This document shows, piece by piece, positions 12,049-13,413 of a DNA stretch of 64,000 nucleotides. Both the position numbers and the translations under genes were made by a program. Source of the DNA: Dromiciops gliroides (Eukaryota > Chordata > Mammalia > Microbiotheria > Microbiotheriidae); assembly GCF_019393635.1 (NCBI RefSeq), contig NC_057864.1, forward strand, positions 446,170,822 through 446,234,821, written 5' to 3'. Within the stretch, counting starts at the first letter, position 1. Each line of letters starts with the position of its first letter. The notes under the pieces are model-generated. The model ran no database searches and was not told the DNA's origin. It saw only the letters and a program-made list of their open reading frames with translations.

Positions 12049-13413
12049 TTAAGCTGCTAGAGTTTGGGGTATGCCACATTGTTTTAACTGGTTCCCCAAT
12101 TCTCTGCATGCCAAAGTGGCAGGGGTTTCTGAATTGTCATTGATCTTTCTAATGCTGTCATAATGTTCTTTATGGTAGAAAATGTGGAGTTCTCTAGCAT
12201 CAGTTTTGTCTGTGCCACTGATTCTCAATAAAGGCTGATTTAATTGATGAACCACAACATTCAGCTGATGCTGCTTAGCAAATGCTACAATTGTATCATT
12301 TCCTCCCCACTTTCCAAATTTCTTTAATTCATCAACATATTCTTCAAAAGGGGAGTCATTTACTATAAAAGACTCAAACTCTTGTCTATGGTTAATCATA
12401 TAAGAAGCAGCTTCTTGTCTGTGTCTGAGATGATTTCTACAGTGACCTTCTAGCTGGTCTGCTAAAGCCCTAAAAAGGCAATTTCCGTCTCCTGATACTT
12501 TACGAAGACTGAGTCCCAAAGCATTTAACTGATCAGTGGGATTCTTAAATGGGAACTTCCTGTTTCCTCTGAACTTTCTTTGCTCTTTAACAGTTGCTAT
12601 CGTTAGGGTTTTTACCTCTTTAGCGTCTACCTCAGGTCTATCTGAAATCTCTTCACCTATGAATGGTGCAGGCTTTATATGAGAGCAATGAATCCATGAG
12701 TCTTTTTCACCAATTTTAATGGCGGTAGGAGTTGTCAATAATACCTGAAAAGGTCCTTCCCAGGCAGGTTGAGTTCCACTGGTTCTCTGAAAATTCTTTA
12801 CATATATTTTATCTCCTGGGTTGAAGTTATGCAATGAAAAGTCTAATGGTCCTGCCTGGACCACAGCTCCTGCCTCATGGAGTTCACGTAGCCTGGTTTG
12901 TAATTCCTGTATATAGGAAGCAACAGAAGTATCACCTCCCACCAGTGATGTATAAACTGGGGAAAAAGTTTTAGCTTGGATAGGAGGGTGACCAAAAAGC
13001 ATTTCATAAGGAGATATATGAAGTTCTCCTCTTGGTCTACTTCGTAGATAGAATAATGCCAATGGTAGAACATCAGGCCATTTCAAATGGGTTTCAGTAC
13101 ATAATTTGCCAATCATACTCTTAAGCTCTTTATTCATACGTTCAACTTGGCCTGAACTTTGTGGATGGTAGGGCGTGTGGAATTTTGGAGTCACTCCCAA
13201 GAAAGAGTAGATTTGGGATAAAATCGAATCAGTGAAATGTGTGCCTTTGTCAGAATCGATGCGGGCTGGTGGGCCAAAACGAGGTACTATCTCTTTAAGG
13301 AGAATTTTGGCAACAAAGGCAGCTGTGGCTCGGGGGCTGGGAAAGGCCTCCACCCACCGAGTGAGCTGATCAACTATAACAAGGCAAAATTTATAATGTC
13401 CTGCTTTTGGCAT
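12049..13413 (-). CDS. ERV Pol part 2: integrase core and C-terminal domain fused to an OTUD3-like deubiquitinase
   Basis: 454 codons from the first ATG after an in-frame stop; the natural protein would begin further upstream in Pol. Residues 1-150 are the integrase catalytic core, with D15 (VIVDQLT), D55 (DSDKG) and E91 (GQVERMN). D55 and E91 are 35 residues apart, the D,D(35)E pattern. Residues about 195-250 are the C-terminal domain (NPGDKIYVKNFQR ... WIHCSHIKPAPF). From about 277 the frame continues, without a stop, into a sequence closely matching cellular OTUD3. The OTU domain spans about 295-431, with the catalytic DGNC motif (D309, C312) and the His motif EHYDS (H417). By eye, about two thirds of residues match remembered OTUD3. 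The last 23 residues contain LKQCG, a word also found further along in OTUD3. OTU proteins cleave ubiquitin chains; activity here is inferred. Confidence 0.9.
   Translation of the reverse strand: MPKAGHYKFCLVIVDQLTRWVEAFPSPRATAAFVAKILLKEIVPRFGPPARIDSDKGTHFTDSILSQIYSFLGVTPKFHTPYHPQSSGQVERMNKELKSMIGKLCTETHLKWPDVLPLALFYLRSRPRGELHISPYEMLFGHPPIQAKTFSPVYTSLVGGDTSVASYIQELQTRLRELHEAGAVVQAGPLDFSLHNFNPGDKIYVKNFQRTSGTQPAWEGPFQVLLTTPTAIKIGEKDSWIHCSHIKPAPFIGEEISDRPEVDAKEVKTLTIATVKEQRKFRGNRKFPFKNPTDQLNALGLSLRKVSGDGNCLFRALADQLEGHCRNHLRHRQEAASYMINHRQEFESFIVNDSPFEEYVDELKKFGKWGGNDTIVAFAKQHQLNVVVHQLNQPLLRISGTDKTDARELHIFYHKEHYDSIRKINDNSETPATLACRELGNQLKQCGIPQTLAA
12121..12531 (-). other. OTU deubiquitinase domain (OTUD3-derived) within ERV pol
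   Basis: Residues 295-431 of the downstream Pol frame. Best-matching words to OTUD3 are GDGNCLFRAL, DQLEGH, QLNVVVHQLN, ARELHI, EHYDS and KINDNSE. The segment has no introns, whereas the cellular gene is spliced, so an mRNA source is likely. Cellular OTUD3 is reported to act on PTEN and on the antiviral adaptor MAVS. Whether the captured copy shares substrates is unknown. Confidence 0.88.

What the first reader, a model, noticed from the sequence alone, without database searches (positions are those of the whole stretch)
12049..13413. Retroviral integrase fused in frame to an OTUD3-like OTU deubiquitinase
Seen: one open - strand frame passes from the integrase D,D(35)E core (D15, D55, E91) and its C-terminal domain into a complete OTU domain with DGNC (D309, C312) and EHYDS (H417). 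The OTU part resembles cellular OTUD3 over about 137 residues and is intron-free. Known: OTU proteases remove ubiquitin, RNA viruses such as nairoviruses and arteriviruses use OTU-fold proteases against innate immunity, and cellular OTUD3 has been linked to MAVS and PTEN. Inference: a retrovirus captured OTUD3 from mRNA and made it the last domain of Gag-Pol, so it would be packaged with the polymerase and could act early after entry or on restriction factors. I know of no retrovirus described with this layout, but could not search.
Basis: partly seen in the sequence, partly recalled or inferred. Interest (0 to 1): 0.97.

Follow-up and report, generated by a model that had tools for sequence, protein, structure and literature searches.

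The report
Retroviral integrase fused to deubiquitinase domain
A defective retrovirus fossil, probably in a marsupial genome, carries a ubiquitin-removing enzyme domain copied from a host gene and joined to the end of its integrase, a layout not seen in the retrovirus records searched here.

Summary
One - strand frame (12049-13428, 459 aa) runs from integrase core and C-terminal domain into an OTU domain whose best solved relative is OTUD3. It lies in a class I provirus: LTRs 9958-10456 and 15949-16320, a purine tract at the 3' LTR, pol in one frame broken by a single stop at 13429-13431; gag, the protease N-terminus and any recognisable env are missing. The nearest relatives found are opossum Pol proteins, 83% identical over 254 integrase residues, which end 6 residues later without OTU. 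The OTU differs from opossum OTUD3 at 51 of 144 sites, yet keeps its catalytic residues, an open frame and too few changes at vertebrate-invariant sites for neutral drift. No Met precedes its catalytic Cys outside integrase, so it reads as the last domain of Pol. Most likely a retrovirus captured OTUD3 exons from RNA and kept them as an integrase-tethered deubiquitinase. Substrate is inferred. Ginger1 DNA transposons have a parallel integrase-OTU layout. Not settled: whether other loci share the junction (the host-genome search did not complete); the locus itself is a recombinant or an assembly chimera of two insertions.

The parts
12667..13428 (-). Integrase catalytic core and C-terminal domain (residues 1-254 of the frame)
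   Evidence: Pfam rve and MLVIN_C; 82.7% identical over 254 residues to opossum P0203 and P0204, whose proteins end 6 residues later; coordinates
12541..12666 (-). Linker between integrase and OTU (residues 255-296), no methionine
   Evidence: no counterpart in P0203/P0204; Met list
12109..12540 (-). OTUD3-derived OTU domain (residues 297-440); D314, C317, H422, D424
   Evidence: Pfam OTU; 4bou E 1.3e-59; predicted fold matches 4bou, rmsd 1.1 A; coordinates
12049..12108 (-). Short unmatched tail and stop codon of the fusion frame
   Evidence: the alignment shows no convincing OTUD3 similarity past the OTU
13429..15960 (-). Protease C-terminal part, RT, RNase H, integrase zinc domain; ends in an in-frame stop at 13429-13431
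   Evidence: Pfam RVT_1, RNase_H, Integrase_H2C2; 71% identical to opossum P0203
15949..16320 (-). 5' LTR, truncated at its inner end and joined directly to protease sequence (gag, protease N-terminus, primer site missing)
9958..10456 (-). 3' LTR
   Evidence: aligned with the 5' LTR, 348 of 371 aligned bases identical plus a 43-base gap; ends
10457..10468 (-). Polypurine tract next to the 3' LTR
   Evidence: sequence AAAGGGGGGAAA
10469..12048 (-). 1.6 kb between OTU frame and polypurine tract; no recognisable env
   Evidence: 0 of 14 minus-strand frames of 35 aa or more match an env family in Pfam; tblastn of 322 proteins held found nothing in the window outside 12079-16014
8183..9957 (.). Flanking DNA, left copy of a 1.78 kb duplication
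   Evidence: one base and one gap differ from 16321-18094
16321..18094 (.). Flanking DNA, right copy of the duplication

Best explanation
A class I (gamma/epsilon-like) retrovirus lineage captured the OTU-coding exons of a vertebrate OTUD3 mRNA at the end of pol, so its Pol ended in integrase-linker-OTU. The OTU then evolved under constraint while the lineage replicated, and a defective copy (or a recombinant of two) now sits here. Shown: the fused open frame, OTUD3 origin, kept catalytic residues, constraint on the OTU, absence of the domain in the nearest relatives found. Inferred: the domain is made only as a Pol extension, enters particles with integrase, and removes ubiquitin near the incoming core or pre-integration complex. 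My preferred step is protection of integrase or the integration complex, or action on ubiquitin signals at the integration site, because Ginger1 elements put OTU or Ulp1 on the same place of an integrase-like enzyme. Damping of RIG-I/MDA5/MAVS signalling, as reported for cellular OTUD3, is the next choice.
For: Open 459-codon frame with both domains. OTUD3 is best PDB hit by sequence and fold (TM 0.94 on 4bou; the model was built on an alignment of OTUD3s, so this is not independent). 51 of 144 sites differ from opossum OTUD3, yet only 18 of 83 vertebrate-invariant sites differ against 29.0 +/- 2.8 in neutral drift, 0 of 4000 runs as low; substitutions are more conservative than drift (1.4% of runs reach it); 8.9% of runs stay stop-free. 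OTU GC3 0.299 is like integrase 0.315 and RT 0.361. No Met between residue 143 (integrase) and 344 (inside OTU). Similarity ends close to the place (after LxTD or LxTE) where OTUD3 isoforms diverge in the 15 proteins printed, i.e. near an exon end, and the OTUD3 C-terminus is absent. Lys129, whose acetylation OTUD3 needs (PMC10566363), is aligned to Lys. LTRs and polypurine tract. Relatives lack OTU (0 of the 120 listed). Ginger1 parallel.
Against: Only one locus seen; no integrase-OTU protein among the 322 proteins held, which are capped top lists, and none confirmed in IMG/VR. This copy lacks gag and has a stop inside integrase. The OTU differs from all 25 OTUD3s aligned by a one-residue deletion near the catalytic His, so activity is not assured. 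The tree does not place it with marsupial OTUD3, nor reject that (p-AU 0.34). The locus is a recombinant or chimeric assembly.
Confidence: 0.62

Rival explanations
1. The OTU diverged in the host first, as an OTUD3 retrogene or lost paralogue under selection, and was captured by one provirus only recently.
For: Explains constraint and long branch and absence in related Pol proteins.
Against: No such host gene among the 120 listed of 343 OTU hits; the five marsupial ones aligned are ordinary OTUD3, 93-94 of 144 identical to the viral domain; OTU GC3 is like the viral pol (host OTUD3 GC3 not measured).
Confidence: 0.17
2. A local accident: an OTUD3 processed pseudogene landed in or beside an integrated provirus and happens to be in frame.
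For: Only one locus is known; the locus is rearranged.
Against: Neutral drift does not give this pattern; the rest of OTUD3 is missing; the provirus has one stop in 1302 pol codons and LTRs 6.2% apart (the two LTRs may come from two insertions), too little decay for a 35% protein difference to have built up after integration.
Confidence: 0.1
3. Assembly chimera made the junction.
For: The 1.78 kb flank copies and unequal 4-base flanks (TAAG, CTAC) suggest two insertions joined in one locus, in the genome or in the assembly.
Against: A switch between like proviruses would not create an in-frame integrase-OTU join; the frame is continuous across it.
Confidence: 0.05
4. Same fusion, other function: the OTU dampens RNA sensing (RIG-I, MDA5, MAVS), as cellular OTUD3 does.
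For: A review lists these as OTUD3 substrates and Lys129 acetylation as a switch (PMC10566363, passages); that Lys is kept.
Against: The same review says OTUD3 raises cGAS activity against DNA viruses, which might harm a retrovirus; tethering to integrase suggests a later place of action.
Confidence: 0.3
5. A domesticated host gene now made from the provirus.
For: The OTU frame is open while gag is gone.
Against: No Met before the OTU outside integrase; the pol frame is about equally open, so nothing singles out the OTU.
Confidence: 0.05

Closest known systems
Class I endogenous retroviruses of opossum (P0203, UniRef K7E2C3; P0204)
   Same: Pol 71% and 67% identical in the RT part, 82.7% in integrase
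   Different: Pol ends 6 residues after the shared integrase; no OTU
Cellular OTUD3 (4bou)
   Same: OTU domain 60-67% identical over 144 sites to the 24 vertebrate rows aligned; catalytic residues kept
   Different: no OTUD3 C-terminus, one-residue deletion near the catalytic His, fused to integrase
Ginger1 DNA transposons (PMC2836005, abstract and passages seen)
   Same: integrase-like enzyme with zinc finger, DDE core, GPY/F motif and C-terminal OTU (or Ulp1)
   Different: no RT or LTRs, terminal inverted repeats; the families tabled there are from hydra, sea hare, aphid and lancelet; their OTU is shown there beside Helitron and yeast OTUs, not OTUD3
Helentron OTU proteins (PMC4067079, passages seen)
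   Same: mobile element with an OTU protease
   Different: rolling-circle element, OTU not on an integrase
Nairovirus OTU proteases (e.g. 3phw, 3pt2, 6dx5)
   Same: OTU fold in a viral protein
   Different: polymerase protein of RNA viruses (recalled); 13-22% identity in the fold alignments against 63% for OTUD3; separate origin
Retroviruses with transduced host genes such as v-rel or v-src (recalled)
   Same: host mRNA sequence joined into a provirus, often at the cost of env
   Different: here a ubiquitin protease in frame with integrase, not an oncogene

Membership tests
Class I endogenous retrovirus | RT, RNase H and integrase with MLV-type C-terminal domain | tested here: met
   nearest relatives found are class I-like Pol proteins
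Class I endogenous retrovirus | Paired LTRs TG...CA, polypurine tract | tested here: met
   the 5' LTR lacks its inner end
Class I endogenous retrovirus | 4-base target-site duplication | tested here: not met
   TAAG and CTAC; read as a recombinant locus. The related solo LTR at 8127-8646 has GTAG on both sides
Class I endogenous retrovirus | gag and env | tested here: not met
   5' LTR runs into protease; no env in 14 minus-strand frames: deletion derivative
OTUD3-type OTU deubiquitinase | closest to OTUD3 among OTU proteins | tested here: met
   204.6 bits against 43.2 for OTUD5
OTUD3-type OTU deubiquitinase | catalytic Asp, Cys, His | tested here: met
OTUD3-type OTU deubiquitinase | ubiquitin chain cleavage | not testable with these tools
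   needs purified protein
OTUD3-type OTU deubiquitinase | UBA region and C-terminus | tested here: not met
   similarity ends after the OTU
Ginger1 DNA transposon | integrase-like enzyme followed by OTU | tested here: met
   against PMC2836005
Ginger1 DNA transposon | terminal inverted repeats, no RT | tested here: not met
   RT and direct LTRs present
Virus-borne accessory domain shared by a family | same junction in several insertions | not tested
   The genome search did not answer in 8 of 8 well-formed tries

The most novel reading that the evidence does not exclude
A marsupial retrovirus lineage spread with a host-derived deubiquitinase as the last domain of Pol, tethered to integrase, acting at the integration step and converging on the integrase-OTU design of Ginger1 transposons.
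Probability: 0.35. Interest if true: 0.93.

Novelty: new variant of a known kind. Interest (0 to 1): 0.78.

Why it matters
Transduced retroviral host genes known to me are mostly oncogenes (recalled). A constrained ubiquitin protease on integrase would show that a retrovirus kept a ubiquitin-editing enzyme at the intasome, would make the question of whether ubiquitin limits incoming retroviral complexes or integration directly testable, and would pair with Ginger1 elements as a second origin of the same enzyme pairing.

Tried and rejected
Env remnant in the 1.6 kb after the OTU: 14 of 14 minus-strand frames of 35 aa or more were scanned with Pfam (10, the other 4); the only hits, both below the curated cut-off and ignored, were a low-complexity repeat family (E 0.12) and a plant-virus movement protein family (E 0.0097). 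tblastn of the 322 proteins held found nothing outside 12079-16014. Frames shorter than 35 aa were not scanned.

Relatives in IMG/VR: whole frame, OTU alignment, integrase: 5, 61 and 5 stretches matched a pattern, none confirmed; the tool warns that records of the window's own genome may be left out.

Single aberrant integration making the 1.78 kb flank copies: disfavoured because those copies differ by one base and one gap while the LTRs differ at 23 of 371 aligned bases, unless the flanks were later evened out.

Placing the OTU in the OTUD3 tree: long branch, next to Mytilus when that is present, unresolved without it.

Papers: searches found 0 papers; others (12 listed of 13; 2; 12 of 55; 15 of 436; 7) gave listings of which I saw titles and starts of abstracts, none about a retrovirus with OTU; (14, marsupial retroviruses) likewise; one search gave one paper, Ginger. 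In PMC11334065 (dasyurid retroviruses) 'OTU', 'ubiquitin', 'accessory', 'captured' and 'host gene' occur 0 times in the main text. PMC6431247: passages seen, OTU named there for Helentrons only.

Limits: protein searches list only the best 120 of 400, 343 and 599 hits and are bound to lengths of about 252-803 and 464-1475 aa, so a longer Gag-Pol-OTU would be missed. The tree used 25 proteins picked by hand from the 202 then held, two of them of unnamed source (P0046, P0050) and counted as vertebrate; others were not aligned. The drift simulation took one opossum sequence with random codons, transition weight 4, no CpG effect and no insertions or deletions, and left out the one-residue deletion. 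Host as marsupial: inferred from opossum Pol relatives and from SINE-like repeats whose marsupial origin is recalled.

Full report
What is there. The - strand frame 12049-13428 is open for 459 codons. Pfam finds the integrase core, the MLV-type integrase C-terminal domain and OTU in that order. The integrase acidic residues are D20, D60 and E96, and the OTU residues D314, C317, H422 and D424. By sequence the OTU part matches the OTUD3 structure 4bou with E 1.3e-59 and 204.6 bits; the next hit, OTUD5, has 43.2 bits. A predicted model (mean pLDDT 78.3; the other four models 41 to 60) fits 4bou at 1.1 A over 138 columns, but it was built on an OTUD3 alignment, so it adds little independent weight.

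The provirus. Upstream in the same frame lies 13429-15960 with protease end, RT, RNase H and the integrase zinc domain. One stop (13429-13431) parts the two frames. The LTRs are 9958-10456 (3') and 15949-16320 (5'); a purine run AAAGGGGGGAAA abuts the 3' LTR. The 5' LTR is cut at its inner end and runs straight into protease sequence, so the primer site, gag and the protease N-terminus are gone. Between the OTU frame and the purine run 1.6 kb show no env in 14 minus-strand frames and no match to any of the 322 proteins held. The copy is therefore defective.

Relatives. The closest Pol proteins found are from opossum: P0203 (a cluster of 44 members) is 71% identical over the RT part and 82.7% over 254 integrase residues, P0204 67% and 82.7%. 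Both end six residues after that point. This fixes where the extra part begins: residue 255. Of the 120 proteins listed (of 599 hits), 0 match the OTU and 92 match the integrase; of all 322 proteins held from three capped lists, 144 match the integrase, 150 the OTU and none both. IMG/VR gave nothing confirmed.

Origin and constraint of the OTU. Over 144 aligned sites it is identical to OTUD3 at 93 (opossum), 94 (koala, mouse), 95 (pig), 88 to 91 (four named amphibians), 88 (coelacanth) and 87 (ray). It has one residue fewer than all 25 OTUD3s aligned, close to the catalytic His. In the tree it is a long branch (0.86 to 1.07 changes per site) without firm place; grouping with marsupials is neither found nor rejected (p-AU 0.34; with mammals 0.38). 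Under neutral drift from opossum OTUD3 to 51 changes, 8.9% of 4000 runs had no stop, 15% kept four catalytic residues, 1.4% had substitutions as conservative, and none had as few changes at the 83 sites invariant in 24 vertebrate rows (18 seen, 29.0 +/- 2.8 expected). So the domain was under selection after leaving OTUD3. The first three measures alone would not exclude drift; the fourth does, under that simple model. Since pol has one stop in 1302 codons and the LTRs differ by 6.2%, most of this change should precede integration here.

How it would be made. No Met lies between integrase residue 143 and OTU residue 344, the latter past the catalytic Cys. The simple reading is a Pol extension. 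Whether the viral protease cuts the linker is unknown. Similarity to OTUD3 stops close to where OTUD3 isoforms diverge after LxTD or LxTE, which suggests an exon end; with no introns inside, capture from spliced RNA is likely, though the host gene's exon map was not at hand.

The locus. The provirus sits between two copies of 1.78 kb (8183-9957 and 16321-18094) that differ by one base and one gap. Its four-base flanks are unequal, TAAG and CTAC, while the uninterrupted sites of both flanks are present at the outer ends of the two copies. This fits an exchange between two insertions of one family 1.78 kb apart, in the genome or in the assembly. Such an exchange between like copies would not create the integrase-OTU join.

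Function. Shown: an OTUD3-type domain with intact catalytic residues, under constraint, in frame with integrase. Inferred: deubiquitinase activity carried by integrase into the new cell. I prefer a role at the pre-integration complex or integration site because Ginger1 transposases, with a like integrase layout, carry OTU or Ulp1 at the same end, and their authors propose a role in transposition or repair (PMC2836005, passages). The rival is damping of RNA sensing: a review reports that OTUD3 acts on MAVS, RIG-I and MDA5, needs Lys129 acetylation, and strengthens cGAS (PMC10566363, passages); the Lys is kept in the viral domain.

Novelty. In the searches named here no retrovirus with OTU turned up; most were seen as listings only, and that library lacks most subscription papers. 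Because captured host genes and integrase-OTU enzymes are each known, I call this a new variant of a known kind.

Noticed in passing
window 8127-8646 (+): Solo LTR of a related family in the opposite direction, flanked by GTAG on both sides; the right end of the provirus joins inside its duplicated copy.
   Followed up: yes
window 8183-9957 and 16321-18094: 1.78 kb copies round the provirus, one base and one gap apart, with unequal four-base flanks: exchange between two insertions or a chimeric assembly.
   Followed up: partly
window 49070-49471 (+), G+C-rich 46001-50000: Open frame starting MTTPALLPLSGRR, which looks like exon 1 of the mannosidase gene MAN1A2 (name recalled, not searched).
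   Followed up: no
window 18273-18344 and 7791-7922: Simple repeats read as YLSI and KKER runs in the frame list.
   Followed up: no
PMC2836005: Ginger1 transposases carry either OTU or Ulp1 after an integrase-like core, so ubiquitin-like proteases joined integrases more than once.
   Followed up: partly
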